64,000 nt of DNA from Sulfitobacter sp. HGT1 (GTDB taxonomy: Bacteria; Pseudomonadota; Alphaproteobacteria; Rhodobacterales; Rhodobacteraceae), in the NCBI RefSeq assembly GCF_013282155.1, contig NZ_BLWI01000010.1:310001-374000 (forward strand), read 5' to 3'. Below, piece after piece: positions 12,942 through 60,180 of this stretch. Within the stretch, counting starts at the first letter, position 1. Each line of letters opens with the position of its first letter. A model generated the notes under the pieces. It did no database searches. It was not told where the DNA came from and saw only the letters and a program-made list of their open reading frames with translations. The position numbers were made by a program, and so were the translations under genes.

Positions 12942-12955
12942 TGTTAGCGCTGTCA
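12942..12955 (+). promoter_or_regulatory. LacI-type operator candidate upstream of tpiA
   Basis: TGTTAGCGCTGTCA is a near palindrome around TTAGCGCT, 72 bases before the tpiA start. Together with the following CA it closely matches the site before gapA at 46009 (16-base match with one difference). Related sites precede gapB and lpdA. Confidence 0.55.
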
Positions 12956-13027
12956 CAGACACCCTAGTCGTTGCCCCGTTCCGGCCCCGCTGCTATCCCG
13001 TTGTAAAAGAACAAAAGGGATATCGTC

Positions 13028-13777
13028 ATGCGTCGTAAACTTGCCGCCGGAAACTGGAAGATGAATGGCACGGCTGCCGCGCTGTCCGAACTGGTTGAAC
13101 TGGCCCGGCAGGTGACCCCGGCCGATGCCGAAACCCTGATTTGCCCGCCTGCCCCCCTGCTTTATCCCGCCTGTGACAAACTGCGCGGCACTGCCATCGC
13201 GATTGGTGCCCAAGATTGCCACGCGCAACCCGCCGGAGCCTTTACCGGTGATATTTCGGCAGGGATGGTGGCGGATACCGGGGCGACTTACGTGATCCTT
13301 GGCCATTCGGAACGCCGCGATCTGCACGCTGAAACAGACGCCGATGTCGCCGCCAAGGCGGGCGCGGCATGGGGCGCAGGGCTGACCGCCATTATTTGCA
13401 TCGGCGAAAGCGGCGAAGACCGCGCGGCGGACAAGACCCTCGATGTTATCGCTGGCCAATTGGCAGGCTCCCTGCCCGATCATGCCACGGGCGAAAATAC
13501 CGTGATCGCCTATGAACCCATCTGGGCCATCGGCACGGGCAAGACCCCGACTCTCGATCAAATCATCGAGGTGCATGATTTCATCCGCGCCCGCCTGACC
13601 GGCCGATTTGGCCAGCAAACCGGTGATGCGATCCGCCTGCTCTATGGCGGCTCGGTCAAACCCGACAATGCCGCCGAAATCTTTACCGCTGAAAATGTCG
13701 ATGGGGCCCTTGTTGGCGGTGCCAGCCTCAAGGCCGCTGATTTCGCCCCGATCATCAAGGCCCTCTCCCGGGCCTGA
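13028..13777 (+). CDS. tpiA: Triose-phosphate isomerase
   Basis: TpiA interconverts dihydroxyacetone phosphate and glyceraldehyde-3-phosphate. The 249-residue protein has the full set of active-site motifs: the lysine in AAGNWKMNG, the histidine in GHSERR, the glutamate in [14 protein letters not shown] with the flexible loop, and the phosphate-binding LYGGSV. The ATG at 13028 follows AAAAGGGATATCGTC. It is monocistronic, with a strong terminator after it and an operator-like palindrome before it that is shared with the gap genes. Confidence 0.98.
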
Positions 13778-13778
13778 T

Positions 13779-13801
13779 TTCATTTTGCTAAATAAACTCA
13801 C
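13779..13801 (-). repeat. AT-rich tail of the dispersed intergenic repeat
   Basis: Read on the minus strand, GAGTTTATTTAGCAAAATGA differs by one base from the consensus tail of the copies at 32042, 49055 and 53943. The G/C hairpin half is absent; the tpiA terminator follows instead. Confidence 0.55.
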
Positions 13802-13815
13802 GGCACCACAGACGC

Positions 13816-13854
13816 AAAAGGGCGGCACGTCGATCTGACATGCCGCCCTTTTTC
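13816..13854. terminator. Bidirectional terminator between tpiA and dctM
   Basis: AAAGGGCGGCA pairs with TGCCGCCCTTT, with T-runs on both strands. It sits between the converging tpiA and dctM genes. Confidence 0.9.
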
Positions 13855-13874
13855 TGTTTTCAATCCGCTGCTTG

Positions 13875-15251
13875 CTAGCGGACCAGAACCTCTGGCCCCA
13901 TCATCAACGTCGGCAACCAGGTCGAAATGATCGGGATGTAGGTGATCATGATCAGGAACACGAACAGGACGGCGGTAAAGGGCAGTGCTGCCTTGACCAC
14001 ATTCATCATCGGCATGTTCGCCACGCCCGAGGTCACGAAGAGGTTCAGACCAACGGGGGGGGTAATCATCCCGATTTCCATGTTCACAACCATGATGATG
14101 CCCAGATGGATCGGGTCGATGCCCAGCTCCATCGCGATGGGGAACACCAGCGGTGCAACGATGATCAACAGGCCCGACGGCTCCATGAACTGGCCGCCGA
14201 TCAACAAGATCACGTTGACGATGATCAGGAACATGATCGGTCCAAAGCCCGCGCTCAGCATCGCGGCCGAGATCTGCTGCGGGATTTGTTCGTCGGTCAG
14301 AACATGTTTCAGGATCAGCGCGTTGGCGATTATGAACATCAGCGTGACGGTCAGTTTGCCGGCCTCGAACAGGGTATCGCGAACATCGCGGTGAAAGAAC
14401 ACAGTGACCAGCGCCAGCGGTTTGCGCAGCAGTGACGTATTGCTGCCCTCGCCTTTGGTGTGCAACGGCCCCATGTCGCGATAGACGAAACAGGCGATAA
14501 AGAACGCATAGACAGCGGCCACAGCGGCGGCTTCGGTGGGGGTAAAGATACCGCCATAGATGCCGCCCAGAATGATCACGATCAGCATCAGGCCCCAGCC
14601 CGCTTCACGCCCCGAGGCAAAGACTTCGCCCCAGCCGCGCCATTCACCCTGTGGCAGTTTCTTGACCCGCGCCATGATGTAGATCGTCAGCATCAGCATG
14701 AAGCCAGCCATCAAGCCGGGGATCACACCCGCCAGGAACATACGGCCCACGGATACATCTGTGGCCGATGCATAGACAACCATCACGATGGAGGGTGGGA
14801 TCAGGATGCCCAAGGTGCCCGCGTTGGCGATCACGCCTGCCGCGAATTCCTTGGTATAGCCGGTTTCACGCATACCTGCGATCACGATGGACCCGATGGC
14901 AACCACGGTGGCGGGCGACGACCCGGACAGGGCCGCAAACATCATACAGGCGAAAACACCCGCAATCGCCAGACCGCCCGGGAAATGCCCGACCAGCGCG
15001 ATGGAGAACCGGATGATCCGTTTCGCCACCCCCCCGGTCGACATGAAGGACGAGGCCAGCACGAAGAACGGGATCGCCAGCAGGGTATAGTGCCCCGCCA
15101 TCGCCTGAAAGAAGGTCTGCGCAATCGACGCCAGCGACGAATCCGACAGCACCAGCAGGAATATGATGGATGAAAAGCCGAGGCTGACAGCGATGGGCAA
15201 ACCCAGCAGCATCAAGCCGACAATCATCAGAAATAGAATGAGGACTTCCAT
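13875..15251 (-). CDS. dctM: TRAP transporter large permease (DctM)
   Basis: This is the main membrane channel of a TRAP transporter, which moves carboxylates across the inner membrane using a sodium or proton gradient. The 458-residue protein is hydrophobic throughout, with about 12 membrane segments and family motifs such as GSSPATVVAIGSIV, LIPPSIVMVVYA and TPPVGLNLFV. It is the last gene of dctPQM and starts five bases after dctQ ends. With the neighbouring DctB/DctD pair, succinate, malate or fumarate is the likely substrate. Confidence 0.95.
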   Translation of the reverse strand: MEVLILFLMIVGLMLLGLPIAVSLGFSSIIFLLVLSDSSLASIAQTFFQAMAGHYTLLAIPFFVLASSFMSTGGVAKRIIRFSIALVGHFPGGLAIAGVFACMMFAALSGSSPATVVAIGSIVIAGMRETGYTKEFAAGVIANAGTLGILIPPSIVMVVYASATDVSVGRMFLAGVIPGLMAGFMLMLTIYIMARVKKLPQGEWRGWGEVFASGREAGWGLMLIVIILGGIYGGIFTPTEAAAVAAVYAFFIACFVYRDMGPLHTKGEGSNTSLLRKPLALVTVFFHRDVRDTLFEAGKLTVTLMFIIANALILKHVLTDEQIPQQISAAMLSAGFGPIMFLIIVNVILLIGGQFMEPSGLLIIVAPLVFPIAMELGIDPIHLGIIMVVNMEIGMITPPVGLNLFVTSGVANMPMMNVVKAALPFTAVLFVFLIMITYIPIISTWLPTLMMGPEVLVR

Positions 15252-15255
15252 CCGG

Positions 15256-15936
15256 TTAATCTCCCGCGTTCATATGTTTGACGGCCTCGATATCGTCCTC
15301 GGCCTCGTGGCTGACGATCAGGCTGGTTGAGACTCCGGTGAAAATCCGCACGCCCGCCTGAATAAAACGGAACAGCAGCAACGCCATGCCCAAGGGCAGC
15401 ATCGCATAGGGGATAAAACGCGGCAGTTTTTCATAGGCTTCGCCCTGGTTCATCGACGCCTCGATAAAGCGCAGCCAGTCGGGCATCGGCATATCGACGG
15501 TCGAATACCACGCCTGATCGCGGCTGTTTTCAAACCCGGTGGGGAACCAGCGGCCCGATGTGGCATCAAGCCCCGCAAACGGTGCCCAGTAATCCCATGC
15601 GCCTTTCAGCAACAGCATCGCGTAGAAGATGCAGACGACCGAAGCGATCAAGGCCAGCACGCGGCGTACAGGGGATGAGAACAGGTTGATAACGGCGTCG
15701 ACACCCAGATGGCCTGTGACTTTCACCGCATAGCTCATTCCGAAAAGAACCAGCCAGGCGAATAGAAAGGTCACCGCTTCGAGGCCCCAGATCAGGCCGG
15801 TGTTGAAACCGTAGCGCAAGACGACGTTGATGAAGGTGATGATCGTCATCAGGCCCAAGATCACGGCAATCGCCGTTTCCTCGAACTCGTGCACGATCCG
15901 GCCCAAGGCCGATGTGGGTTGATATCCAGATGACAT
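15256..15936 (-). CDS. dctQ: TRAP transporter small permease (DctQ)
   Basis: This is a 226-residue membrane protein with four main hydrophobic segments, including VILGLMTIITFINVVLRY near the N-terminus, as in DctQ proteins. It forms a complex with DctM. A hairpin with a T-run lies between dctP and this gene, which would lower its expression relative to the binding protein. Confidence 0.92.
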   Translation of the reverse strand: MSSGYQPTSALGRIVHEFEETAIAVILGLMTIITFINVVLRYGFNTGLIWGLEAVTFLFAWLVLFGMSYAVKVTGHLGVDAVINLFSSPVRRVLALIASVVCIFYAMLLLKGAWDYWAPFAGLDATSGRWFPTGFENSRDQAWYSTVDMPMPDWLRFIEASMNQGEAYEKLPRFIPYAMLPLGMALLLFRFIQAGVRIFTGVSTSLIVSHEAEDDIEAVKHMNAGD

Positions 15937-15996
15937 GAAAAACTCCGCTGAAATGCAGAAAGCTGGCAGGTGTGCAGGGTGCCCTGGCGGCCAGAT

Positions 15997-16030
15997 GAAA
16001 AAATGCCCCGCCCATTACAGGCGGGACATT
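15997..16030 (-). terminator. Intra-operon terminator between dctP and dctQ
   Basis: A 10-bp stem (ATGTCCCGCC / GGCGGGGCAT, one U-G pair) is followed by six T residues on the minus strand. Partial termination here would give more binding protein than permease, a common design in binding-protein transporters. Confidence 0.8.
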
Positions 16031-16041
16031 CATTTAAACGT

Positions 16042-17043
16042 TTAGTGTTTTGCGTTGATCGCTTGGGCAGCGTCGATGTTTTCCTGGCCAACATCTGCCT
16101 GGAACTCGGACCAAACCGGCATCATCGCATCAACCCAGACCTGGCGTGCATCTGCGTCCAGCTCGATGATGGTCGAACCGGCATCCAGAACCGCCTGGCG
16201 TGCGTTGCTGTCGACTTCGCCCACGGCCGCGTTACGCGCTACGGTGACTTCTTCCAGAATTGTGGCAAGCTGTGTGCGCACGTCGTCTGGCAGGCCGTTC
16301 CACCAATCGGTCGATGTCACGACCATATAGTCGATGATACCGTGGTTGGTTTCGGTGATACCGTCCTGAACTTCAAAGAACTTCTGGCCGTAGATGTTGG
16401 ACCAGGTGTTTTCCTGACCGTCCACAACGCCGGTTTGCAGCGCGCCATATACTTCGGAGAACGCCATTGGCTGCGGGGAAACGCCGATCGCTTCCATCTG
16501 TGCCTTGATCACGTCAGATGCCTGAACGCGGAATTTCAGACCGTTTGCATCGGATGGTGTGTTCAGTGGCTTGTTGGCAGACATCTGCTTCATGCCGTTG
16601 TGCCAGAATTGCAGACCGGACAGACCGCGACGCTCCATCGAGGCTTTCATCGCCTGACCTGTTTCGGAGTTCTGGAACTCGTCCACCGCTTCGATGTTCT
16701 TGAACATGAACGGAAGGTCGAAGATGCGGAATTGCTTGGTGAACTGTTCGAATTTGGACAGCGAAGGTGCGGCCAGTTGAACATCGCCTTGCAGCATGGC
16801 TTCGAGAACCTGATCATCGTTGTACAATGTCGAGTTCGGGAACACTTCCATGCAGGCTTTGCCGTTCATCTCTGTGTTTACGCGCTCGGCAAGCAGGGTG
16901 GCAGCGATGCCTTTTGGGTGCTTGTCGGTGTTTGTCACGTGGCTGAACTTGATCAGGATTTCGCCGTCGTCACATGCGGCAGATACGGCACCTGCGCTCA
17001 CGGAAAGGGTCAGCGCAACTGCGGCTGTTGTCAGGAATTTCAT
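16042..17043 (-). CDS. dctP: TRAP dicarboxylate-binding protein (DctP)
   Basis: This is the periplasmic solute-binding subunit, 333 residues, with a signal peptide (MKFLTTAAVALTLSVSAGAV) cut near SAACDDGE. DctP family features include the LIKFSHVTNTDKHPKG N-terminus, the carboxylate-binding arginine in LKFRVQASDVIKAQMEAIG, and the VDGQENTWSNIYGQKF segment. The start has GGGAGGAGACACCAC upstream. Two DctD-type operator boxes lie about 200 bases upstream. Confidence 0.95.
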   Translation of the reverse strand: MKFLTTAAVALTLSVSAGAVSAACDDGEILIKFSHVTNTDKHPKGIAATLLAERVNTEMNGKACMEVFPNSTLYNDDQVLEAMLQGDVQLAAPSLSKFEQFTKQFRIFDLPFMFKNIEAVDEFQNSETGQAMKASMERRGLSGLQFWHNGMKQMSANKPLNTPSDANGLKFRVQASDVIKAQMEAIGVSPQPMAFSEVYGALQTGVVDGQENTWSNIYGQKFFEVQDGITETNHGIIDYMVVTSTDWWNGLPDDVRTQLATILEEVTVARNAAVGEVDSNARQAVLDAGSTIIELDADARQVWVDAMMPVWSEFQADVGQENIDAAQAINAKH

Positions 17044-17110
17044 GTGGTGTCTCCTCCCAGAGAACTGATTTTAGGGTCTCGGCAATCGGGTGACCGACTG
17101 CGATGGAAAG

Positions 17111-17139
17111 AGTAGAACGCCAAACCGCGACCCGTACAA
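17111..17139 (-). promoter_or_regulatory. Candidate sigma70-type promoter for dctP
   Basis: On the minus strand, TTGTAC and TCTACT are 17 bases apart (four of six matches to each consensus element). I looked for a sigma54 GG-N10-GC promoter in the same region and found only a poor match. This is a weak prediction. Confidence 0.25.
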
Positions 17140-17238
17140 GCCTGTCGAGGCGGCCAGATTTTCAACCAGGAAAGCGCAATGTTTTTCGCCGCTTAGCGGA
17201 TTTTCGCCGATTGGCCGGCAGAATGGCGATCTGGCGAT

Positions 17239-17254
17239 GTGCGAAAAGCCGCAC
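17239..17254 (-). promoter_or_regulatory. DctD-type operator box 2 upstream of dctP
   Basis: The plus-strand sequence GTGCGAAAAGCCGCAC differs at only two positions from box 1 at 17271-17286. The boxes are 32 bases apart, about three helical turns, so they lie on the same face of the DNA. Confidence 0.6.
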
Positions 17255-17268
17255 GGTGCTTTTGGCGG

Positions 17269-17288
17269 TTGTGCGGAAAACCGCACAA
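17269..17288 (-). promoter_or_regulatory. DctD-type operator box 1 upstream of dctP
   Basis: TTGTGCGG and CCGCACAA form a perfect 8-bp inverted repeat with four bases between. GTGCGG-N4-CCGCAC resembles the DctD upstream activating sites I know from rhizobial dctA promoters. It touches the end of the dctD gene. Confidence 0.7.
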
Positions 17289-17290
17289 AC

Positions 17291-18520
17291 TCAGGTGCGG
17301 TAATCCTCGGCGCGAATCCCGTAGCGTGTCAGCTTGTCATAGAATGTCTTGCGCGGCAGTTTCAGCGTCAGGGCCGCGGCACTGGCCTGCCCCCCCGCCC
17401 GCTTGAGCGCGGCCCGCAGCAGCGACTGTTCGACCTGCGCCATCTGTTCGGCCAGTCCCAGTTCCGCATCCGGTGCCGTATCCTCGGCCACCCCCATGAC
17501 AAACCGCATCGCCGCCGACATCAGGGCGCGCGCATTGCCCGGCCAGTCCTGCGCCATCAGATCCGCAATCACCTGAGGCGAGATCGGCGGGACGGCAAGG
17601 CCGGATTGTTCCGCCGCCTGATCCACATAGCGCCGGAACAGGATCGGAATATCCTCGGGCCGCTCTGCCAGTGACGGTATCCGCACCGGCATCACCTCAA
17701 GCCGGTAGTACAGATCGGCGTGAAACCGTCCCTCGCCGACCAACGCGGACAAATCATGGGTGCTGCCCGCGATCAGCCGCATCTCGGTCCCGCCTTCCAG
17801 CGCTTCGATCAGGGTCAACTGGGTCTGCGCGGGCAATTGTGTCACCTCGTCCAGAAACAGACTGCCACCCGCCGCTGTGGCAAGCGCATCGGTCAGATCG
17901 GCAGGGGCCAGCCCGCCCCCTGCACGTTTGACAAACGGGGCTTTTGAGCGCGCGGAAGACAGGTGAATGACCTCGGCGATCTTGGAAATGCCCGATCCAT
18001 AGGGGCCGATCACCAGCACCTCGGCATCGGTGGCGGCGGCACGGCGCACCTTGCCCCGCAAGGTTTCCGCAAGGGTCGAGCTGCCAAAGATCAGCCGCGC
18101 TGCCGGATCGCCGCTTTCGACCATTTGCAGCAGACGCCGGTTTTCCAACACCAGCATCCGGGTTTTCAACGCCCGCTCGATCACCGCCAGCAGGGCGACG
18201 GGCGCACAGGGTTTTTCCAGAAAATCAAAGGCCCCCGCCTCCATCGCGCGCACGGCCATGGGAATGTCACCTTCGCCGGTCAGCAAGATCACCGGCAGAT
18301 CGGGGTCTTTATCCTGCGCGTAATCGAGCAAATGAAACCCGTCGCGCCCCGGCATCCGCATGTCTGACAGGATAATGCCGTCAAACGAAGCGGTAATCCG
18401 GTCTTTTGCCGCGACAAAAGACCCCGCCACGATGACGTCGATATCGGCCAGTTCCAGCGTCTGCGCCAAGGCCTCGCGGACATGGGAATCATCATCAACC
18501 AGCAAAACGGTTCTGCTCAT
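17291..18520 (-). CDS. dctD: DctD-like response regulator with degenerate AAA+ domain
   Basis: This 409-residue NtrC-class regulator has a receiver domain with phospho-acceptor Asp53 (LSDMRMPG), a central AAA+ domain and a C-terminal Fis-type helix-turn-helix (KLPRKTFYDKLTRYGI). The AAA+ part is abnormal. Walker A reads GPYGSGIS at 172-179, with Ile in place of Lys; the GAFTGA loop is absent because about 30 residues before Walker B GGSLFLDE are replaced; and the first arginine finger is His (FHADLYYRL). Such a protein is unlikely to drive sigma54 polymerase. It overlaps dctB by four bases. Confidence 0.9.
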   Translation of the reverse strand: MSRTVLLVDDDSHVREALAQTLELADIDVIVAGSFVAAKDRITASFDGIILSDMRMPGRDGFHLLDYAQDKDPDLPVILLTGEGDIPMAVRAMEAGAFDFLEKPCAPVALLAVIERALKTRMLVLENRRLLQMVESGDPAARLIFGSSTLAETLRGKVRRAAATDAEVLVIGPYGSGISKIAEVIHLSSARSKAPFVKRAGGGLAPADLTDALATAAGGSLFLDEVTQLPAQTQLTLIEALEGGTEMRLIAGSTHDLSALVGEGRFHADLYYRLEVMPVRIPSLAERPEDIPILFRRYVDQAAEQSGLAVPPISPQVIADLMAQDWPGNARALMSAAMRFVMGVAEDTAPDAELGLAEQMAQVEQSLLRAALKRAGGQASAAALTLKLPRKTFYDKLTRYGIRAEDYRT

Positions 18521-20271: not shown

Positions 20272-20331
20272 CTTGGTAATTTGGCACAGACACGCTTGCA
20301 AAGACCAGAGGGCGCAGTATTCCTGCGGATC

Positions 20332-21513: not shown

Positions 21514-21520
21514 CCGCGCG

Positions 21521-21982
21521 TTACAGCGGCAGCATCGTCGTGGACTTAATCTGCTCCATCGACAAAAGCGCTGTGACGTTATGCACCCGCACCTCTGAAA
21601 TCAGCGCCTGATAAAACGCGTCATAGGCCCGCGCGTTTTTGACCCGCACCTTGAGGATATAGTCGATATCGCCCGCCAGACGGTGTGCTTCCTGCACCTC
21701 GGGGCGGTCTTGCAGCGCCTTGAGGAATTTCGCCTGCCAGTCGGCTTCATGCTCTGATGTGCGGATCAGGACAAAGAAACACGCCTCAAAGCCCAAGGCC
21801 TCCGCATCCAGCACGACAGTGTGCTGCCCGATCACACCTGCCTCGCGTAATTTGCGAATCCGGTTCCAGACAGGCGTCTTGGAAGACCCGACTTCACGGG
21901 CAATATCGTCCAAAGACTGGCTCGCATCCCGTTGAAGCTGCGCCAAAATCTTCCGATCTACCTCGTCTATACGAACGTCCAT
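21521..21982 (-). CDS. Lrp/AsnC family transcriptional regulator
   Basis: This is a 153-residue regulator with an N-terminal helix-turn-helix (SLDDIAREVGSSKTPVWNRIRKL) and a C-terminal RAM/AsnC ligand domain (AHRLAGDIDYILKVRVKNARAY). It is divergent from cysG, and an inverted repeat lies in the shared promoter region, so it probably controls the sulfur-assimilation operon and itself. The effector is not known; a sulfur amino acid would fit the context. Confidence 0.92.
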   Translation of the reverse strand: MDVRIDEVDRKILAQLQRDASQSLDDIAREVGSSKTPVWNRIRKLREAGVIGQHTVVLDAEALGFEACFFVLIRTSEHEADWQAKFLKALQDRPEVQEAHRLAGDIDYILKVRVKNARAYDAFYQALISEVRVHNVTALLSMEQIKSTTMLPL

Positions 21983-43507: not shown

Positions 43508-43520
43508 CTAGACCGCTGCG
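43508..43520 (+). repeat. 13-bp direct repeat, right copy
   Basis: This is an exact copy of 42541-42553. It covers the stop codon and last codons of the minus-strand DUF808 gene, so an insertion using this sequence would leave the gene intact. Confidence 0.5.
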
Positions 43521-44500
43521 GGGTCTTTCTTTTTGCCGCTGAACACGGCGCGCCACAGGGGGGTGACGATTTTCTCGCCCACGGGGATCAGGATCAGGCC
43601 AAGGGCCAGCCCGAACACGCCGTCCATCGCGGCCTTGGCGATCCATTCGACAGCGCCGGTATAGTTCGCGGGTACCAGGTGGCCGACATAGGCAGCCGCG
43701 TCATGGATCAGGTGGCCCAAGGTGTCAAAGCCCAACACCTCCATGCCGTGGATGATGATCGAACCGCCCACCCACAGCATCGCCGCAGTGCCGACAATGG
43801 TCAGGGTGGTCAGGAATTTCGGCATACCGCGCACCACCGCACGGCCAATGACCCGCGTCGGGCCAAGGTTGCCGTTTTTCGCCATGTACAGCCCCACATC
43901 ATCGGCCTTAACGATCAGCGCCACCGACCCGTAGACCGCCACGGTAATCATCACCGCAGCCGCAGCCAGTGCCGCCGCTTCCATCCAGAAATTCGTGACT
44001 GCAAGGTTGGACAGGATAATCGTCATGATCTCGGCCGACAGGATGAAATCGGTCTTGATCGCACCTTGGGCCTTTTGTTCTTCGAGATGAGCGGGGTCTT
44101 CTATCGTTTCTTCCTTGCCGGGGTATTCCTCGTGCCCTGCCCCGCCAACCCCCAAGGCATGGGCGACTTTCTCGGCCCCCTCAAAGCACAGATAGGCACC
44201 GCCCAACATCAGCAGCGGCGGAATGGCCCAAGGCGCGAAATTCGACAGCAGCAAACCTGCCGGCAGCAAAAACACCAACTTGTTTTTCAACGATCCCTTG
44301 GTGATCCGCCAGATGATCGGCAATTCACGCTTGGCCTCGAAACCGTGCACATATTTCGGCGTCACGGCCGCATCGTCGATCACCGCGCCCGCAGCTTTGG
44401 CGCTGGCTTTGGCAGCCTGGCCGAACACATCATCGACGCTTGCCGCCGCCACCTTGGCAATCGCTGCGACATCGTCCAACAGCGCCAGTAAACCACTCAT
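43508..44500 (-). CDS. DUF808 (YedI-like) membrane protein
   Basis: This is a 330-residue inner-membrane protein with several hydrophobic helices after a soluble, alanine-rich N-terminus (MSGLLALLDDVAAIAKVAAAS). The sequences FEAKRELPIIWRITKGSLKNK and LLMLGGAYLCFEGAEK are typical of the YedI/DUF808 family. The ATG at 44500 is preferred over a TTG one codon earlier. The biochemical role of the family is unknown. The last 13 bases recur at 42541. Confidence 0.88.
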   Translation of the reverse strand: MSGLLALLDDVAAIAKVAAASVDDVFGQAAKASAKAAGAVIDDAAVTPKYVHGFEAKRELPIIWRITKGSLKNKLVFLLPAGLLLSNFAPWAIPPLLMLGGAYLCFEGAEKVAHALGVGGAGHEEYPGKEETIEDPAHLEEQKAQGAIKTDFILSAEIMTIILSNLAVTNFWMEAAALAAAAVMITVAVYGSVALIVKADDVGLYMAKNGNLGPTRVIGRAVVRGMPKFLTTLTIVGTAAMLWVGGSIIIHGMEVLGFDTLGHLIHDAAAYVGHLVPANYTGAVEWIAKAAMDGVFGLALGLILIPVGEKIVTPLWRAVFSGKKKDPAAV

Positions 44501-44567
44501 CAAAATTCTCCAATTCAGTCAGGTGTAAACTTAACCCAGTCGCCCGCGAAGGCAAACACCCTGTGAC

Positions 44568-44600
44568 ATTTACCGCTAACATCCCTGGTTAACGCTAACA
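44568..44600. promoter_or_regulatory. Tandem LacI-type operator candidates upstream of gapB
   Basis: Two 14-base sites, ATTTACCGCTAACA (44568-44581) and GGTTAACGCTAACA (44587-44600), share the half-site CGCTAACA and lie 19 bases centre to centre. On the other strand they contain TGTTAGCG, as do the tpiA and gapA sites. Confidence 0.55.
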
Positions 44601-44691: not shown

Positions 44692-45693
44692 ATGACCATC
44701 AAAGTCGGTATTAACGGATTTGGCCGGATTGGCCGTTGCACCCTGTCACATATCGCAGCGTCGGGCCGCGATGACATCGAAGTGGTTCGCATCAACGCAA
44801 CAGGCCCGCTCGAGACAGCAGCGCATCTGATCAAATACGATTCCGTCCATGGTCGCTTTCCAAACGAGGTAAAAGTCGGCAACGGCACGCTTGATCTGGG
44901 CCGTGGCCCGATGGAGGTCATGTCGACCTACAAGATGGAAGAGCTGAACTGGGACGGCTGCGATGTGGTTCTGGAATGTACCGGCAAATTCAACGACGGT
45001 GAAAAGGCCAAGGTGCATCTTGAGCGCGGCGCAAAACGTGTGCTGCTGTCGGCACCGGGCAAAAACGTCGACCGCACAATCGTTTACGGCGTGAACGACC
45101 ATGAATTGCAGGCCTCGGACACGATGATTTCAAACGGGTCCTGCACCACCAACTGCCTGGCACCGATGGCCAAGGTTTTGCAGGATGCATTCGGCATCGA
45201 ATATGGCATCATGACCACGATCCACAGCTATACCGGCGACCAGCCCACGCTGGACCGCCGCCATGATGACCTGTACCGCGCCCGCGCGGCGGCCATGGCG
45301 TTGATCCCCACCTCCACCGGTGCGGCGGCTGCCTTGGGCGAAGTTCTGCCCGCGCTCAAGGGCAAGCTGGACGGTACCGCCATGCGCGTGCCCACCCCCA
45401 ATGTCAGCGCGGTTGATCTTACTTTCCGTGCCTCGCGCGATGTTACCGTCGACGAAGTCAACGCCGCCATGCGTGCCGCCGCCGAAGGGCCGATGAAACG
45501 CGTTCTGGGCTATGATCCCGAAAAGAAAGTCTCCATCGACTTTAACCACACCGAAGAAAGTTCAATCTTTGCCCCCGATCAAACCATGGTCGTCGCAGAC
45601 CGCATGGTGCGCGTGCTGGCGTGGTACGATAACGAATGGGGTTTCTCTGTGCGCATGGCCGATGTTGCCGTCGCCATGGGCAAACTTGGCTAA
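44692..45693 (+). CDS. Glyceraldehyde-3-phosphate dehydrogenase, GapB-like cofactor site
   Basis: This is a 333-residue GAPDH with catalytic Cys151 in SNGSCTTNC. At the end of the second strand of the Rossmann fold it reads VVRINATG (34-36 INA), lacking the aspartate that selects NAD in the second copy. The alanine and the following AHLIKYDSVHGRF and CTGKFNDGEKAKVHLERGAK resemble B. subtilis GapB, which is NADP-dependent and gluconeogenic, so an anabolic role is inferred. The start has AAAGGACG upstream. Two operator-like palindromes lie about 110 bases before it. Confidence 0.93.
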   Translation: MTIKVGINGFGRIGRCTLSHIAASGRDDIEVVRINATGPLETAAHLIKYDSVHGRFPNEVKVGNGTLDLGRGPMEVMSTYKMEELNWDGCDVVLECTGKFNDGEKAKVHLERGAKRVLLSAPGKNVDRTIVYGVNDHELQASDTMISNGSCTTNCLAPMAKVLQDAFGIEYGIMTTIHSYTGDQPTLDRRHDDLYRARAAAMALIPTSTGAAAALGEVLPALKGKLDGTAMRVPTPNVSAVDLTFRASRDVTVDEVNAAMRAAAEGPMKRVLGYDPEKKVSIDFNHTEESSIFAPDQTMVVADRMVRVLAWYDNEWGFSVRMADVAVAMGKLG

Positions 45694-46008: not shown

Positions 46009-46022
46009 TGTTAGCGCTATCA
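46009..46022 (+). promoter_or_regulatory. LacI-type operator candidate upstream of gapA
   Basis: TGTTAGCGCTATCA is palindromic at all but one pair and ends 19 bases before the gapA start, just before the ribosome site. A repressor here would block transcription. It matches the tpiA site at 13 of 14 positions. Confidence 0.6.
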
Positions 46023-46041: not shown

Positions 46042-47043
46042 ATGGCTACGAAACTCGCAATCAATGGCTTTGGCCGCATTGGCCGCAACGTGCTGCGCGC
46101 CTTGATGGAACAAGGGGGCGACGACCTGCAAGTGGTCGCAATCAACGATCTGGCCCCGCTTGAGACAAACGCACATCTGTTTGAATTCGATTCCGTTCAT
46201 GGCCGCTATGGCCGTCCGGTAACCTTGGGCGACGGGACCATGGATGTGGGCCAAGGGCCGATCCGCGTCACAGCAGAGCGTGACCCCGCGGCCCTGCCCT
46301 GGGGCGATGTGGACATCGCGCTGGAATGCACCGGCATTTTTGTGACCCGCGACGGTGCCGCCAAGCATCTTGCGAACGGATCGAAACGGGTCCTGATCTC
46401 GGCCCCCGGAAAAGACGCCATGAAAACAATTGTTTACGGTGTGAACCACGACATTCTTGATGCCGATGACACGGTCATGAGCAACGCATCCTGCACCACC
46501 AACTGCATGGCCCCGCTGACCAAAACGCTGAACGACGCCTTCGGCATTGTGCATGGCCACATGACAACGATCCACGCTTTTACCGGCGACCAGCCCACCC
46601 ATGACACAGCCCATAGCGATCTGTACCGCGCCCGTGCTGCATCCCTGTCGATGATCCCCACCACCACCGGTGCGGCCAAGACTTTGGGCAAGGTTCTGCC
46701 GGAACTTGACGGTCTGATCGGCGGCACCGCGATCCGCGTGCCGACACCGAACGTGTCCTGCGTCGATCTGGTGATCGAAGTTGCGCGCAAGGTGACTGTG
46801 GAAGAAGTGAACCAGGTGCTGCGCAGCGCATCCGAAGGTGCCCTCAAGGGCATCATGGGCATGGTCGACAAACCGCTGGTGTCCATCGACCTGAACCACG
46901 ACAGCCATTCCTGCGTCGTAGCGACCGACCAGACCTCGGTTCAAAACGGCACACAGCTGCGCGTTCTGGCGTGGTATGATAACGAATGGGGCTTTTCGAA
47001 CCGGATGCTGGATACATCCCGCGTGATCGCGAAATTCCTCTAG
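46042..47043 (+). CDS. gap: Glyceraldehyde-3-phosphate dehydrogenase, NAD-type
   Basis: This is the second GAPDH, 333 residues, with catalytic Cys151 in SNASCTTNC. The dinucleotide-binding strand ends VVAINDLAP (IND at 34-36), so the NAD-selecting aspartate is present and a glycolytic role is likely. The start follows CAGGAGGACGCCCC. It shares the operator palindrome with tpiA and with the first gap gene, which suggests joint control. The two copies differ enough to be old paralogues, not a recent duplication. Confidence 0.96.
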   Translation: MATKLAINGFGRIGRNVLRALMEQGGDDLQVVAINDLAPLETNAHLFEFDSVHGRYGRPVTLGDGTMDVGQGPIRVTAERDPAALPWGDVDIALECTGIFVTRDGAAKHLANGSKRVLISAPGKDAMKTIVYGVNHDILDADDTVMSNASCTTNCMAPLTKTLNDAFGIVHGHMTTIHAFTGDQPTHDTAHSDLYRARAASLSMIPTTTGAAKTLGKVLPELDGLIGGTAIRVPTPNVSCVDLVIEVARKVTVEEVNQVLRSASEGALKGIMGMVDKPLVSIDLNHDSHSCVVATDQTSVQNGTQLRVLAWYDNEWGFSNRMLDTSRVIAKFL

Positions 47044-53897: not shown

Positions 53898-53910
53898 GTT
53901 TCTGAGGGGA

Positions 53911-53964
53911 AGGCCGGGGGTTTCACACCCCCGGACCCCCGTGGAGTTTATCTGGCAAAATGAA
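53911..53964 (+). repeat. Dispersed intergenic repeat, full copy
   Basis: The hairpin CCGGGGGTTTCACACCCCCGG is followed by ACCCCCGTGGAGTTTATCTG and GCAAAATGAA. It lies between the converging mmsB and uvrA and may serve as their terminator. Confidence 0.65.
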
Positions 53965-53972
53965 CGGTGCCT

Positions 53973-56855
53973 TTATTCGGCGGCAACCTTGCGCGGGGCC
54001 AGCATCGGTTTGAGGTAGTGGCCTGTGTGGCTTTCCGCGACCTCGGCGACCTGTTCGGGGGTGCCTGTCGCCACCACACGGCCCCCGCCATCGCCGCCTT
54101 CGGGCCCGATGTCGATGATGTAGTCGGCGGTTTTCACCACGTCGAGGTTGTGTTCGATCACCACGACCGAATTTCCCTGATCGACCAATTCATGCAGCAC
54201 TTCCAACAGCTTGCGCACGTCTTCGAAATGCAGGCCGGTGGTGGGTTCATCCAGAATATACAGCGTCCGCCCCGTGGACCGTTTGCTCAACTCCTTTGAC
54301 AGCTTGACGCGCTGCGCCTCGCCGCCGGACAGGGTCGTCGCCTGCTGGCCCACCTTGATGTAGCCAAGTCCCACGCGCATCAGCGCATCCATTTTCTCGC
54401 GGATGGACGGGACGGCCTGAAAGAAGGTCTGCGCGTCTTCCACGGTCATATCCAGCACGTCGGCGATGGATTTGCCCTTGAACTTCACCTCGAGCGTTTC
54501 GCGGTTATAGCGCTTGCCCTTGCAGGTTTCGCATTCGACATAGACATCCGGCAGGAAATGCATCTCGATCTTGATGACGCCGTCCCCCTGGCACGCCTCG
54601 CAGCGCCCGCCCTTGACGTTAAAGCTGAAGCGACCGGGCTTGTAGCCGCGCGCCTTGGCTTCGGGCAGGCCCGCGAACCAGTCGCGGATCGGCGTGAAAG
54701 CCCCGGTATAGGTTGCAGGGTTCGACCGCGGGGTGCGCCCGATGGGGCGTTGGTCGATGTCGATCACCTTGTCCAGATGCTCCAACCCCTTGATCGTTTC
54801 GCAGGGTGCGGGCGTCTGGCGGGCCCCGTTCAGGTTCATGGACGCGGTTTTGAACAGGGTTTCGATGGTCAGGGTCGATTTGCCGCCGCCCGACACACCA
54901 GTGACGCAGACAAACTGCCCCAAGGGGAAGTCAACGGTGACGTCTTGCAGGTTGTTGCCCGTGGCTTTGACGACCTTGATCTTTTTCTTGTTGCCCTTGC
55001 GCCGCTTGGCCGGCACCGAGATTTCGCGTTTGCCGGTCAGGTATTGACCGGTCAAAGAGTTCGGGTCGTTGGCCACATGTTCGGGCGTGCCGTGGCTGAC
55101 CACCTGACCGCCATGCACACCGGCCCCCGGACCAATGTCGAAAACATAATCGGCCTCGCGGATCGCTTCTTCGTCATGTTCGACGACAATCACGGTGTTG
55201 CCCTGGTCGCGCAGGTTCTTCAGCGTCAGCAGCAGCCGGTCGTTGTCGCGCTGGTGCAAGCCGATGGAGGGTTCATCAAGGACATAGAGAACCCCCGTCA
55301 GCCCCGACCCGATTTGCGAGGCCAGACGGATGCGCTGGCTTTCCCCACCGCTGAGCGTTCCACTTGAACGTGCCAGCGTAAGGTATTCTAATCCCACGTT
55401 ATTCAGGAATCCGAGCCGCTCGCGAATTTCCTTGAGAATGGCGCGGGCGATCTCGTTCTTTTGCTTGCTCAGCTGGTCGGGAACGGCATTGCACCAGTCG
55501 AATGCCTCGCGGATCGACATCTGCACAACCTGACCTGCGTGCAGACGCTGGTCGGGGGTGCCATCGACGGGGCCGATCTTGACGGCCAGCGCTTCGGGGC
55601 GCAGTCGGTAGCCTTCGCAGGTGCCGCAGGGGCGGTTGTTCTGGTAGCGCTCGAACTCTTCGCGGATCCAGTTGCTGTCGGTCTCGCGGTAGCGGCGTTC
55701 CATGTTGGGGATCACCCCTTCAAAGACACGGCTGACCTCGTAGACGCGGCCCCCTTCATCGTAGCGGAACTTGATCTCTTCCTTGCCGGAGCCGTGCAAA
55801 AACACCTGCTGCACCTTTTCGGGCAGGTCTTTCCACTTGGTGCTTTTGTTGAATTCGTAATGTTTGGCGATGGCTTCGATGGTTTGCAGGAAATAGGGCG
55901 ACTTGCCCTTGCGCCACGGGGCCAACGCGCCGTCATAAATCTTGAGATTCTGATCCGGCACGACCAGCCGTTCGTCAAAGAACAGCTCCTTGCCCAAACC
56001 GTCACAGGACGGGCAGGCCCCAAAGGGCGCGTTAAAGGAAAACAGGCGCGGTTCGATCTCGGGGATGGTGAAGCCGCTGACGGGACAGGCGAATTTCTCG
56101 CTGAAGGTCTGGCGTTCGGGGTCGCCTTCGGCGGGCGCGGTTTCGAGGATCGCAATGCCATCGGCCAGATCAAGCGCTGTGCGCAGGCTGTCGGCCAGAC
56201 GTGTTTCCAGCCCCTCGCGCACGACAAGGCGGTCCACGACCACGTCGATGTCATGGCGGAATTTCTTGTCCAGCGTCGGAGGTTCGTCCAGTTCAAAGAA
56301 TTCGCCGTTTACCTTGACCCGCTGGAACCCCTGCTTGCGCAGCTCGAGGAATTCCTTGCGGTATTCGCCTTTGCGGTCGCGCACGATGGGGGCCAGCAGA
56401 TAGGCACGGGTGCCCTCCTCCATCATCATGATGCGGTCGACCATGTCCTGCACCTGCTGCGCCTCGATAGGTTTGCCGGTGGCGGGGGAATACGGAGTTC
56501 CGACACGGGCGAACAGCAGACGCATGTAATCGTAAATCTCGGTCACGGTGCCGACGGTCGAACGGGGGTTTTTCGACGTGGTTTTCTGTTCGATCGAGAT
56601 TGCCGGCGACAGGCCGCTGATGTGGTCCACATCAGGTTTCTGCATCATATCAAGGAATTGGCGGGCATAGGCGCTTAGGCTTTCGACATAGCGGCGCTGC
56701 CCTTCGGCATATATCGTGTCGAAAGCGAGCGAGGATTTACCGGAACCTGACAGGCCCGTGATCACCACCAACTGATCGCGCGGAATATCCACGTCGATGT
56801 TCTTTAGATTATGTTCGCGCGCGCCGCGCACTTCGATGTATTTCAGCTCAGCCAT
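53973..56855 (-). CDS. uvrA: Excinuclease ABC subunit A
   Basis: UvrA scans DNA for bulky damage in nucleotide excision repair and loads UvrB. The 960-residue protein has two ABC ATPase modules ([15 protein letters not shown] near residue 31, and [15 protein letters not shown] in the second half), signature motifs [12 protein letters not shown] and [12 protein letters not shown], and the zinc-finger cysteines in [16 protein letters not shown] and CEACQGDG with [10 protein letters not shown]. Length and order are normal. Confidence 0.98.
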
Positions 56856-56934
56856 CAGACACCCCCGTTAAGACTCTGTACATAGGGGCGCGTTGCGGAT
56901 TCTCCAATGGAAAAATCAGAACACATCGGGAACG

Positions 56935-58089
56935 TTACATGCGGTTGCGCAGCCTGCCCAAAATCAGGTGCGCACAGAGCCCGCCGATACAGGCCAGACC
57001 CGCGACCACCGGCATGCCAGCATAGCCAAAGCTTAACAGCACCGAGGCGATGACCGGCGTTCCCAGCGTATTGCCCAGATTGCCCATTTGCGCCATGGCC
57101 CCGTTCGCTTGGGCTTGGGCGGCCGCAGTATCGTTCAACTGCGGAACCGCTGCAAAGCTGGCCCCCTGGATCAGCCCCAATGCCGCCGCAAGGGCAAGAC
57201 AGGCCAAAGGCGCGCCGGGAACCGCCCATAGCCACGCCAGACACAGCGCCGATCCGGCAAAGCCCAGTTCGACCACGCGCACGGCTGACACATGGCGCAG
57301 CAGCCACACACCCATCGTCATGGAGACGATGATGCTGACAATCGGCATGGCGGCAAGGATCAGGTTGCGCAACTCCGGGGACAGATAGGGCGGCAGGACG
57401 GTCAGGATCGACACAAAGCAAAAGGTATAGAACAGCCAACCGGCAGCCGGTGCGCTGATATAAGGTGAGCGGTAGATCGTGCCGTGATCGCGCATGATCT
57501 GGCGCAGGTTCAGGACGGGTTGCGGCCCTTCGGGCGGAAGCCGTTTGAGCCAGCCGGATAAAAGTACCGCGAAAACAGCCATATACGCCGAATGCGCTGC
57601 AAACAATGCCGGTATTCCCCAGCCCGCAACCAAGGGCCGCCCCAGCAGCGACAACACGGCAAAGGCCACCCCAAAGAACGTCCCCCAGAGCGAAAGGGTC
57701 AACCCGCGATCCTTGGGCGCGCTGAGTTGCGCGATCAAGGTGGGGGCCGCGACAACAATGGCCAGATGCGACGCGCCCTCAATCACGCGGCTGGCCAGCA
57801 GCAGCGGCAGGTCGGGCAAAAGCGCCTGAAACGCCGACACCCCCGCCCCGATCCAAAGCGCGCTGATCAAGGCCCGCCGGTAGCGCACCCGCGCCACGAC
57901 CAACCCCGCCACCACGCCAAAGACGATGCCGACCAGCCCCACCAGCGACACCACAAAGCCCAACGCGGCCCCTGCCCCCGGATAGACCGCAGGCAGCGCG
58001 TCGAAAACCACGCTGACCTTGCCATATTGCGCAGCGGCACCCAGACCCGCGCCCCATAGGGCGAATATCAACGGAAATGGTGTTTTCAC
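56935..58089 (-). CDS. MFS transporter
   Basis: This is a 384-residue membrane protein with about 12 helices. The GLVVARVRYRRALIS loop between helices 2 and 3 fits the MFS signature position. The start is a GTG at 58089 with only a weak ribosome site. It lies 18 bases after the methyltransferase gene, so the two may be co-transcribed. The substrate is unknown. Confidence 0.85.
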   Translation of the reverse strand: MKTPFPLIFALWGAGLGAAAQYGKVSVVFDALPAVYPGAGAALGFVVSLVGLVGIVFGVVAGLVVARVRYRRALISALWIGAGVSAFQALLPDLPLLLASRVIEGASHLAIVVAAPTLIAQLSAPKDRGLTLSLWGTFFGVAFAVLSLLGRPLVAGWGIPALFAAHSAYMAVFAVLLSGWLKRLPPEGPQPVLNLRQIMRDHGTIYRSPYISAPAAGWLFYTFCFVSILTVLPPYLSPELRNLILAAMPIVSIIVSMTMGVWLLRHVSAVRVVELGFAGSALCLAWLWAVPGAPLACLALAAALGLIQGASFAAVPQLNDTAAAQAQANGAMAQMGNLGNTLGTPVIASVLLSFGYAGMPVVAGLACIGGLCAHLILGRLRNRM

Positions 58090-58107
58090 GAGACGACCAC
58101 CGCCGCT

Positions 58108-58671
58108 TCAGGTCTTTTGCGCCAAGGCCCATGCGCAGATCGGCATATCCGGGTCGTTGGAGATATCATCCGTGGCCTCGTCATATTCGGGGGGCCATTT
58201 TTCTTCCATGTTGCGCAGGGCGGCGTTGCGGTTGCCCCATTGGCTGGATTGAATGGCGTCTTCGTCGAACCCGCATTCGATCAGCAGGTTCTTCAGCCCC
58301 CGCGCAGACCAGCGCGAATTATCCGCAGGGGCCGCGTGAAATGGCACGAAAAACGGCACGGCCACCCAGAAATGGCCGCCCTTTTTCAACATCCGGCGGA
58401 CGTTTTTTGTGGCGGCATAGGGACGGTCCAGATGTTCCCACACCTGATTGGCGAGGATCAGATCAAATTTGCGGGGGCGGTCCTGCGGATTGTCCATGAT
58501 CGGACCGGCGCAGATGTCATATTCGGGATAGCGGAATTGTTCGTAGGATTTGAAATCGAACATCTCGCCCCATTTGCCCGAAATCTCAGCAACATCAAGC
58601 TGCTGCGGGATGAGGTTCTGGATCATCCGGCGGGATGCCGGGCCCATGACGACGCGATTTAGACTTACCAT
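58108..58671 (-). CDS. Class I SAM-dependent methyltransferase-like protein
   Basis: This is a 187-residue protein with the later strands of a methyltransferase fold: FDLILANQVWEHLDRPYAAT and MLKKGGHFWVAVPFFVPFH. The glycine-rich SAM loop that normally opens the fold is weak or missing (KLDVAEISGKWGEMFDF instead of a GxGxG pattern). It may act on a small molecule or lipid. It sits between lpdA and an MFS gene on the same strand. Confidence 0.75.
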   Translation of the reverse strand: MVSLNRVVMGPASRRMIQNLIPQQLDVAEISGKWGEMFDFKSYEQFRYPEYDICAGPIMDNPQDRPRKFDLILANQVWEHLDRPYAATKNVRRMLKKGGHFWVAVPFFVPFHAAPADNSRWSARGLKNLLIECGFDEDAIQSSQWGNRNAALRNMEEKWPPEYDEATDDISNDPDMPICAWALAQKT

Positions 58672-58691
58672 ATGCAATCTATGGCAGGGGT

Positions 58692-58720
58692 GCGCCACTC
58701 CGTCCAGAACGGAATGGCGC
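58692..58720 (-). terminator. Hairpin after lpdA
   Basis: GCGCCA pairs with TGGCGC, extended by TCCGT/ACGGA, just past the lpdA stop. No clear T-run follows, so it may only partly stop transcription. Confidence 0.5.
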
Positions 58721-58729
58721 GGGTCGTTT

Positions 58730-60124
58730 TTACATGTGGATGACTTTGCCGTAAGCGTCGAGAACGGCCTCGTGCATCATCTCGGACAGGGTCGGATGCG
58801 GGAAGACGGTGTTCATCAGGTCTTCCTCGGTTGTCTCAAGCTGACGGCCCACGACATAGCCCTGGATCAGTTCGGTCACTTCGGCCCCAACCATGTGCGC
58901 GCCCAGCAATTCGCCGGTTTTTGCGTCGAACACGGTTTTGATCATGCCCTCGGGTTCGCCCAAGGCAATCGCCTTGCCGTTGCCGATAAAGGGGAAGCGG
59001 CCTACTTTGACGTCGAAACCCAGTTCCTTGGCCTTGGCTTCGGTATAGCCCACGGACGCGATTTGCGGGTGGCAATAGGTACAGCCCGCGATGGATTCAG
59101 GTTTCACAGGATGCGCGTGTTTGCCCGCGATCAGTTCGGCCACCATGACACCTTCGTGCGACGCCTTATGCGCCAGCCACGGGGCCCCCGCGATGTCGCC
59201 AATGGCATAAAGCCCGTCAACGCCGGTCCGGCAATATTCATCGGTGACAACATGGGTGCGGTCGACTTTGACGCCCATTTCCTCAAGACCCAAGTCTTCG
59301 ACGTTGCCGACGATGCCCACGGCGGAGATCACGGTATCGAATTCTTGCTTCTCGATCTTGCCGCCCACTTCGATATGGGCAGTGACCTTGTCAGCCGCGC
59401 GGTCCAGCTGTTTGACGACAGCCTTTTGCATGATCTTCATGCCCTGCTTTTCAAACTGCTTTTTCGCGAATTTGCTGATCTCCTCATCCTCGACGGGCAG
59501 GATGCGGTCCATCACTTCGACGACCGTGGTGTCAGCGCCCAAGGTGTTGTAAAAACTGGCGAATTCAATGCCGATGGCACCCGATCCGATGACCAGCAGC
59601 TTTTTCGGCATATGCGGAGGTTGCAGCGCGTCCTTGTACATCCAGACGCGTTTGCCGTCGGCCTCAAGGCCCGGCAGGTTGCGTGCGCGCGCCCCCGTGG
59701 CCAGCACGATGTTCTTGGCCGTCAGATCTTCACTGCCCTTGTCGGTCTTGACCGAAACCTTGCCCTTGCCGGCCAGTTTGGCCGCGCCCATGAACACGGT
59801 GACCTTGTTCTTTTTCATCAGATGGCCGATGCCGCCCGACAATTGCCCCGCAACCTTGCGCGACCGTTTCACAACAGCATCCAGATCATAGCCGATGTTA
59901 TCCGCCTTCAACCCGAATTCGGCCGCGCGGTGCATCAGGTGGAACACTTCGGAAGACCGCAGCAGCGCCTTGGTCGGGATGCAGCCCCAGTTCAGACAGA
60001 TGCCCCCCAGATGTTCGCGTTCGACGATTGCGACCGACAGCCCCAATTGTGCGCCGCGGATCGCAGCGACATAGCCGCCGGGCCCTGCACCGATCACAAT
60101 CAGATCAAAGGATTTTTCAGCCAT
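58730..60124 (-). CDS. lpdA: Dihydrolipoyl dehydrogenase
   Basis: This is the E3 flavoprotein that reoxidises dihydrolipoamide in 2-oxoacid dehydrogenase or glycine cleavage complexes. The 464-residue protein has the FAD motif VIGAGPGGYVAAIRGAQLG, the redox pair GGICLNWGCIPTKAL, the NAD motif VIGSGAIGIEFASFY and the C-terminal active-site HPTLSEMMHEAV. The ATG at 60124 follows GCGAGG. No E1 or E2 gene is adjacent, so this is a stand-alone copy. A striking palindrome lies just upstream. Confidence 0.96.
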   Translation of the reverse strand: MAEKSFDLIVIGAGPGGYVAAIRGAQLGLSVAIVEREHLGGICLNWGCIPTKALLRSSEVFHLMHRAAEFGLKADNIGYDLDAVVKRSRKVAGQLSGGIGHLMKKNKVTVFMGAAKLAGKGKVSVKTDKGSEDLTAKNIVLATGARARNLPGLEADGKRVWMYKDALQPPHMPKKLLVIGSGAIGIEFASFYNTLGADTTVVEVMDRILPVEDEEISKFAKKQFEKQGMKIMQKAVVKQLDRAADKVTAHIEVGGKIEKQEFDTVISAVGIVGNVEDLGLEEMGVKVDRTHVVTDEYCRTGVDGLYAIGDIAGAPWLAHKASHEGVMVAELIAGKHAHPVKPESIAGCTYCHPQIASVGYTEAKAKELGFDVKVGRFPFIGNGKAIALGEPEGMIKTVFDAKTGELLGAHMVGAEVTELIQGYVVGRQLETTEEDLMNTVFPHPTLSEMMHEAVLDAYGKVIHM

Positions 60125-60148
60125 AGGGAAACCTCGCAGCATGGGAGA

Positions 60149-60180
60149 GAAAATATAGTTTAGCGGTAAACTATATTTTC
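60149..60180. promoter_or_regulatory. 14-bp perfect inverted repeat upstream of lpdA (operator or hairpin)
   Basis: GAAAATATAGTTTA and TAAACTATATTTTC flank GCGG. The centre GTTTAGCGGTAAAC shares TTAGCGGTAA with the first gapB site. It lies 25 bases before the lpdA start, where a repressor would block expression. An AT-rich terminator for the upstream DUF924 gene is the alternative reading. Confidence 0.6.

What the first reader, a model, noticed from the sequence alone, without database searches (positions are those of the whole stretch)
12942..60180. One 14-bp palindrome precedes tpiA, both gap genes and lpdA
Sites TGTTAGCGCTGTCA (12942), ATTTACCGCTAACA (44568), GGTTAACGCTAACA (44587), TGTTAGCGCTATCA (46009) and GTTTAGCGGTAAAC (60158) share a core TTAGCG(C/G)T on one strand. 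By eye I found no other intergenic copy in the window. The genes are metabolically linked and lie up to 47 kb apart, so a regulon is likely. Size and symmetry suit a LacI-family protein; CceR, a known alphaproteobacterial LacI regulator of central carbon metabolism, is the obvious candidate. The lpdA link would extend it to 2-oxoacid dehydrogenase function.
Basis: partly seen in the sequence, partly recalled or inferred. Interest (0 to 1): 0.72.

Follow-up and report, generated by a model that had tools for sequence, protein, structure and literature searches.

The report
Two look-alike switches for carbon metabolism
The repeated DNA sites before sugar-pathway genes are most likely the known CceR switch, but the site before lpdA is a different switch, probably read by a conserved MarR protein, that also marks the pyruvate dehydrogenase and malic enzyme genes across this bacterial family.

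Summary
All five sites exist where stated, but they are two motifs. The tpiA, gap1 (tandem) and gap2 sites fit TGTTAGCGCTAACA ("N6"). N6 also precedes zwf, edd, pyk and a PfkB kinase here, and in 26 of 30 relatives' loci it lies at edd, zwf, gap, pyc, pyk, frk, fbaB or cceR. A CceR-like LacI protein is encoded. That part is the known CceR regulon.

The lpdA site is TAGTTTA-N4-TAAACTA ("N8"); the genome's other copies precede pdhA and, with one mismatch, maeB. Of 99 distinct family copies, 94 precede pdhA, lpdA or maeB and one aceE. N8 stands at all three genes in a 99%-complete relative with no LacI protein over the cut-off, so CceR is not its reader there. The operator sits in cis at acg-marR operons elsewhere (37 of 80 MarR loci; shuffles 0.2), whose MarRs share the recognition helix of a MarR conserved in this family. 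Near-complete N8 genomes carry that MarR in 63 of 63 cases. I propose that it controls PDH, LPD and malic enzyme. Binding is untested.

The parts
12942..12955 (+). N6 (CceR-type) site TGTTAGCGCTGTCA, about 73 nt before the tpiA start
13028..13777 (+). tpiA, triosephosphate isomerase
   Evidence: TIGR00419 over its cut-off
44568..44581 (+). N6-like site 1 of a tandem pair (ATTTACCGCTAACA)
44587..44600 (+). N6 site 2 of the tandem pair (GGTTAACGCTAACA), about 92 nt before gap1; a PRK10062-like gene diverges on the other side
43508..44503 (-). PRK10062-like gene (hypothetical protein), divergent from gap1
   Evidence: NF007476, E 4.7e-62, below its cut-off
44692..45693 (+). gap1, type I glyceraldehyde-3-phosphate dehydrogenase
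   Evidence: TIGR01534 over its cut-off
46009..46022 (+). N6 site TGTTAGCGCTATCA, about 20 nt before gap2
46042..47043 (+). gap2, type I glyceraldehyde-3-phosphate dehydrogenase
   Evidence: TIGR01534 over its cut-off
60156..60173 (.). N8 site TAGTTTAGCGGTAAACTA, proposed MarR operator, 31 nt before the likely lpdA start (ATG at 60124 on the minus strand)
60149..60180 (.). extended palindrome with perfect 14-bp arms around N8
   Evidence: RNA fold z = -5.25
58730..60142 (-). lpdA, dihydrolipoyl dehydrogenase (ORF; the start is likely 60124, by eye)
   Evidence: TIGR01350 over its cut-off

Best explanation
Two regulons meet in this window. (1) TGTTAGCGCTAACA-type sites before tpiA, gap1 and gap2 are operators of the LacI-family regulator CceR, whose likely orthologue this genome encodes; with zwf, edd, pyk and a PfkB kinase they form the CceR regulon. 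(2) TAGTTTA-N4-TAAACTA before lpdA is an operator of a second regulator with three targets in this genome: pdhA, lpdA and maeB, i.e. genes that make acetyl-CoA from pyruvate and pyruvate from malate. The inferred mechanism is that a MarR dimer binds the two TAGTTTA half-sites, about one helical turn apart, over the promoter/start region shortly before the start codon, represses, and lets go when it binds an unknown ligand, perhaps a pyruvate- or acyl-CoA-related metabolite. Shown: motif, positions, conservation, target identity, absence of LacI proteins over the cut-off in one N8 genome, cis association of the operator with related MarR genes. Inferred: that P0004 binds N8, repression, and the ligand.
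For: N6/CceR: of the 14 genome sites with <=2 mismatches, 7 precede tpiA, gap1, gap2, zwf, edd, pyk or a PfkB kinase and 5 lie inside genes or ORFs; family N6 loci (one in each of 30 genomes) are at central-carbon genes or cceR in 26, i.e. 25 of 26 genomes with a CceR relative and 1 of 4 without one; N6 presence tracks CceR in near-complete genomes, 92 of 97 versus 23 of 35 (p=5.5e-5). N8: exact N8 in 69 of 149 family genomes, reversed control in 1; of 99 distinct family sites classified, 94 at pdhA (51), maeB (28) or lpdA (15), one more at aceE; in the class sample all 5 family members but 3 of 380 other genomes, reversed control 1 of 385. Not CceR: G074 (99% complete) has no LacI-domain protein over the cut-off, yet exact N8 at lpdA, maeB and pdhA. 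MarR: the 3 class hits outside the family are before acg-type oxidoreductase genes, and a marR gene follows directly in two of them and in G027; in 80 loci found by the MarR alignment (best 80 kept of 557) 37 have N8 <=2 mismatches and 24 <=1, against 0.2 and 0 in shuffles; the recognition helix VT(R/K)GA(M/I)TNT is shared; near-complete N8 genomes carry the MarR in 63 of 63 versus 53 of 69 without exact N8 (p=1.4e-5), CceR 59 of 63 versus 56 of 69 (p=0.039).
Against: No binding or expression data. P. denitrificans without cceR has less MaeB (PMC11323563, section 8), so CceR affects malic enzyme there, directly or not. PMC4344238 predicted malic enzyme and PdhAB as CceR targets with spacing N6-8. 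The family's own MarR loci hold no N8 site. 53 of 69 near-complete genomes without exact N8 still have the MarR, mostly with the same helix (31 of 40 examined out of 60). Among acg-linked MarRs with the usual helix 8 of 40 have no N8 with <=2 mismatches. Helix type changes only once on the MarR tree, so the helix/operator match among acg loci (32 of 40 versus 1 of 16) is about one event. The central YR step in 49 of 50 N8 sites is also a LacI-operator trait (recalled). The co-occurrence tests are not corrected for kinship; N6 presence also correlates with the MarR (p=0.00019). Four family N8 sites precede none of the four reference genes or aceE. G103 has no CceR match yet an N6 site 238 nt before gap.
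Confidence: 0.74

Rival explanations
1. CceR reads both spacings (GTT-N6-AAC and GTT-N8-AAC), as predicted in 2015: one central-carbon regulon that includes pdhA, lpdA and maeB.
For: PMC4344238 passages; MaeB lowered in P. denitrificans delta-cceR; the same inner core and YR centre.
Against: G074 lacks any LacI protein over the cut-off but has exact N8 at all three genes. G165, G119 and G063, without a CceR match at E<=1e-60, keep N8 at maeB or pdhA (G119 and G063 each also have one N8 site at neither). None of the 102 N8 sites classified lies at the ED/EMP genes that carry N6. The same operator is in cis with marR genes in other families.
Confidence: 0.13
2. N8 is read by another, unidentified regulator (a different MarR, or a TetR or XRE protein) of this family.
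For: No direct proof ties P0004 to N8 in the family; no N8 site lies near its gene; the genome has 21 PF12802 matches over the cut-off.
Against: Of 20 own PF12802 loci and the window, P0004's locus is the best match to the N8-linked MarRs (42% identity; next 33-35%); shared recognition helix; 63 of 63 co-occurrence.
Confidence: 0.12
3. The lpdA palindrome acts as an RNA hairpin (attenuator or terminator) rather than a protein site.
For: The lpdA leader folds strongly (z = -5.25); several lpdA sites have longer A/T arms.
Against: No terminator-like pattern; the 7-4-7 core is conserved before three unlinked genes and in tandem pairs at acg operons.
Confidence: 0.03

Closest known systems
CceR regulon of Rhodobacter sphaeroides and Paracoccus denitrificans (LacI family)
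   Same: A related LacI-type regulator; sites before ED and glycolytic genes; the GTT-N6-AAC spacing.
   Different: pdhA, lpdA and maeB carry a different operator, here separated from CceR; upstream of this genome's own cceR the best N6 match has 5 mismatches, unlike three relatives.
Clusters 15 and 36 of the R. sphaeroides network model (PMC4344238)
   Same: Both spacings and the targets PdhAB and malic enzyme were already seen there (passages).
   Different: There one regulator (RSP_1663) was assigned to both; here the N8 part is reassigned to a MarR protein. Which genes are in which cluster was not seen.
acg-type FMN oxidoreductase / marR operons, in genomes labelled Alpha- and some Gamma- or Betaproteobacteria (many of them MAGs)
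   Same: Same operator, often in tandem; MarR with the same recognition helix.
   Different: There the operator is in cis to the regulator's operon; in this family the sites are in trans at central-metabolism genes.
PdhR of Escherichia coli (GntR family; recalled)
   Same: A dedicated regulator of pyruvate dehydrogenase and lpd.
   Different: Another protein family and another operator.

Membership tests
CceR regulon (N6 sites) | LacI-type HTH plus sugar-binding domain, orthologous to CceR | tested here: inconclusive
   P0001: PF00356 and PF00532; relatives in 129 of 149 family genomes at E<=1e-60. No sequence of a named CceR was at hand for comparison; orthology rests on family and targets
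CceR regulon (N6 sites) | GTT-N6-AAC operator before ED and glycolytic genes | tested here: met
   spacing from PMC4344238
CceR regulon (N6 sites) | Site before cceR itself (seen in some relatives; an occasional, not a defining, trait) | tested here: not met
   present in G072, G162, G043; best match before the own cceR has 5 mismatches
CceR regulon (N6 sites) | 6-phosphogluconate as effector | not testable with these tools
   stated in PMC5507952 and PMC4419725 passages
CceR regulon (lpdA/N8 site) | Needs CceR or another LacI protein in the genome | tested here: not met
   G074: no PF00356 match over the cut-off, three N8 sites at the three genes
MarR-regulated operon (N8) | MarR winged-helix domain in the proposed reader | tested here: met
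   P0004: PF12802 and PF01047 over their cut-offs
MarR-regulated operon (N8) | Operator linked to marR genes of the same clade | tested here: inconclusive
   37 of 80 loci <=2 mismatches, shuffles 0.2, but in the sister acg clade and its neighbours; no locus of the family's own clade has it nearby
MarR-regulated operon (N8) | Specific binding of P0004 to N8 and ligand release | not testable with these tools
   needs EMSA or footprinting

The most novel reading that the evidence does not exclude
A MarR-family protein, related to local repressors of acg-type oxidoreductase operons, has become the dedicated regulator of acetyl-CoA supply (pyruvate dehydrogenase, lipoamide dehydrogenase, malic enzyme) across the Rhodobacteraceae sensu lato; its operator has moved from its own operon to three unlinked central-metabolism genes, follows PDH function even where the E1 gene is aceE, and has been mistaken for a CceR variant.
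Probability: 0.68. Interest if true: 0.65.

Novelty: new variant of a known kind. Interest (0 to 1): 0.56.

Why it matters
It separates two regulons that look alike by eye and were grouped in a published network model, names a testable regulator for pyruvate dehydrogenase and malic enzyme in a bacterial family that is common in the sea (recalled), and gives a case of a local MarR repressor recruited to core metabolism.

Tried and rejected
Treating all five sites as one matrix: rejected, because N6 and N8 have different arms, different genes and different co-occurrence. A <=3-mismatch genome scan: uninformative, 74 places against 199 for the reversed pattern; with <=2 mismatches the signal is clear. 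LacI paralogues P0002 and P0003 as N8 readers: rejected through G074. AkgR (RSP_0981; that these are one protein is recalled): a GntR protein predicted for suc and sdh genes, not these. PhaR/AniA: motif with YGCRNYGCR (passages), different. An autoregulated regulator found by a 2-mismatch N8 scan of nine genomes: none seen; the background hits led to another palindrome. Helix/operator covariation as independent proof: rejected, one change on the tree. Terminator at lpdA: no pattern. Conservation of the tpiA site in relatives was not tested: no search was left. Paper searches for the N8 letters and for MarR with PDH in this group gave nothing relevant in their listings; Imam et al. 2015 mBio is not held, so its target list was not seen. 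Papers: passages of PMC11323563 plus its whole section 8, passages of PMC5507952, PMC4419725, PMC12542648 and PMC4344238; no supplementary files.
Full report
Observation. TGTTAGCGCTAACA with <=3 mismatches has 5 matches in the window against 1.01 expected, and 1 of 100 shuffles reaches 5. The lpdA site is not one of them; it is a perfect match to another palindrome and the centre of 14-bp perfect arms. I call the first motif N6 (GTT-N6-AAC) and the second N8 (GTT-N8-AAC, TAGTTTA-N4-TAAACTA).

N6 is the CceR operator. The window lies in a 3.8-Mb genome held as G000. With <=2 mismatches N6 has 14 places there. Seven precede pyk, edd, zwf, gap1, gap2, tpiA or a PfkB kinase. Four lie inside genes by a rough codon-usage caller and one more (L008) inside a galM-like ORF that the caller missed. 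The remaining two are near a response-regulator-like gene (L005) and no called gene (L010). Of the 60 places with three mismatches 36 were examined, 23 of them inside genes; the whole <=3-mismatch set (74) is smaller than that of the reversed pattern (199), so it carries no information. The genome has three LacI-family proteins. One, P0001, is the CceR candidate: it scores best with GntR-type LacI models (below their cut-offs) and matches the solved LacI-family protein 3kjx with 610 bits, and relatives of it occur in 129 of 149 family genomes at E<=1e-60. No named CceR sequence was compared. N6 (<=1 mismatch) occurs in 106 of 149. Of 30 loci, one in each of 30 genomes, 26 are at edd (9), zwf (7), gap (4), pyc (2), pyk, frk, fbaB or cceR. 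The four misses are in G141, G119, G063 and G031; the last three lack a CceR orthologue (no match, or 43% at best). A fourth genome without a match, G103, has its site 238 nt before gap and counts among the 26. So the share is 25 of 26 with a CceR relative (G149's is 51% identical) and 1 of 4 without. N6 sites lie before cceR in three genomes (L234-L236), noticed and not counted systematically, but before the own cceR the best match has 5 mismatches. This fits what is known of CceR (passages of PMC5507952 and PMC11323563). The tpiA site itself was not tested for conservation.

N8 is another regulon. The own genome has N8 before lpdA, pdhA and, with one mismatch, maeB. Eighteen of 18 same-genus genomes have one to three copies (<=1 mismatch); one of them also matches the reversed control. 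In nine genomes a 2-mismatch scan gives 37 places against 74 for the reversed control, so only the near-exact sites mean something. In the family 69 of 149 genomes have an exact N8, the reversed control 1. Among 385 genomes of the class, 8 have N8 with a YR centre: all 5 family members and 3 of 380 others; the reversed control has 1. I classified 102 distinct exact sites: pdhA 51, maeB 28, lpdA 15, acg-type gene 3 (the three outside the family), none 5. One of the five 'none' is before aceE, the homodimeric PDH E1 (the model score of the 486-aa part given is under the cut-off for the whole protein), so the site follows PDH function; the other four (G119, G058, G063, G062) look like chance. From the site to the first open ATG there are mostly 17-42 nt, which suits a repressor over the promoter; this is inference, since no start sites are known here.

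N8 is not read by CceR. A 2015 network model of R. sphaeroides gave RSP_1663 the motif GTT-N6-8-AAC in two spacer clusters, with targets that include malic enzyme and PdhAB (PMC4344238, passages; that RSP_1663 is CceR is recalled). Among the 20 genomes without a CceR match, five have exact N8: G049, G063, G074, G119 and G165. G074 is 99% complete, has no PF00356 match over the cut-off (best 18.5 bits), and has exact N8 at lpdA, maeB and pdhA. The other four, and G149 with a 51% relative, do have LacI proteins, so the weight rests on G074. Against this reading, MaeB falls in a P. denitrificans cceR mutant, which may be indirect.

A MarR protein is the likely reader. All three class hits outside the family, and one near-match in G027, lie before an acg-type FMN oxidoreductase gene; a marR gene follows directly in G304, G384 and G027 (in G308 my ORF search did not call it). 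The sites are paired there 21-24 bp apart. Of 20 own PF12802 loci (21 matches are over the cut-off) and the window, the best match of these MarRs is L092, 42% identical, next 33-35%. Its protein P0004 sits beside ubiG-like and carbon-nitrogen-hydrolase-like genes, also in relatives. A genome-collection scan with five MarRs kept the best 80 of 557 loci: N8 with <=2 mismatches is within 37, <=1 within 24, exact within 13, against 0.2, 0 and 0 in shuffles; 33 of 56 acg-linked loci and 4 of 24 others have it. The family's own MarRs have none nearby and form one clade (SH-aLRT 100) beside the acg clade on a midpoint-rooted tree. The recognition helix VT(R/K)GA(M/I)TNT is common to both. acg-linked MarRs with it have N8 in 32 of 40, others in 1 of 16, but the helix type changed once on the tree, so this counts as about one event. 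In near-complete genomes with exact N8 the MarR is present in 63 of 63, without it in 53 of 69 (p=1.4e-5); for CceR 59 of 63 and 56 of 69 (p=0.039). The two N8 genomes without the MarR, G063 and G125, are 74% and 77% complete. These tests ignore kinship. Many genomes have the MarR but no exact N8, mostly with the same helix (31 of 40 examined out of 60); their sites may be degenerate, which I could not test.

Verdict. The tpiA/gap part is the known CceR regulon. The lpdA part is a separate, sharply conserved three-gene regulon of the pyruvate node, most likely under a MarR protein. I found no paper that says this, but the key CceR paper was not held.

Noticed in passing
L072 (G000:C10:457500-461700), L073-L077: A TACTTTA-N4-TAAAATA-like palindrome precedes an FAD-monooxygenase-like gene in four genomes, a kynureninase-like gene in G170 and a 3-hydroxyanthranilate-dioxygenase-like gene in G102 (gene names by eye); a MarR match lies nearby in G000 (C10:456214).
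   Followed up: partly
L005 (G000:C10:422707): A 1-mismatch N6 site lies about 43 nt before a response-regulator-like gene.
   Followed up: no
L234-L236 (G072, G162, G043): N6 sites directly before cceR itself, i.e. likely autoregulation in relatives; none before the own cceR.
   Followed up: partly
L184/L272 (G187): N8 before aceE, the homodimeric pyruvate dehydrogenase E1, rather than pdhA.
   Followed up: yes
window 43508-44600: The tandem N6 pair lies between gap1 and a divergent PRK10062-like gene, which could be co-regulated.
   Followed up: no
L317, L322, L327, L332, L334, L341: acg-linked MarRs of a Rhodobacteraceae MAG, Shimia, Roseobacter and Yoonia have another recognition helix (VPKTxxTHTL) and no N8 nearby.
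   Followed up: partly
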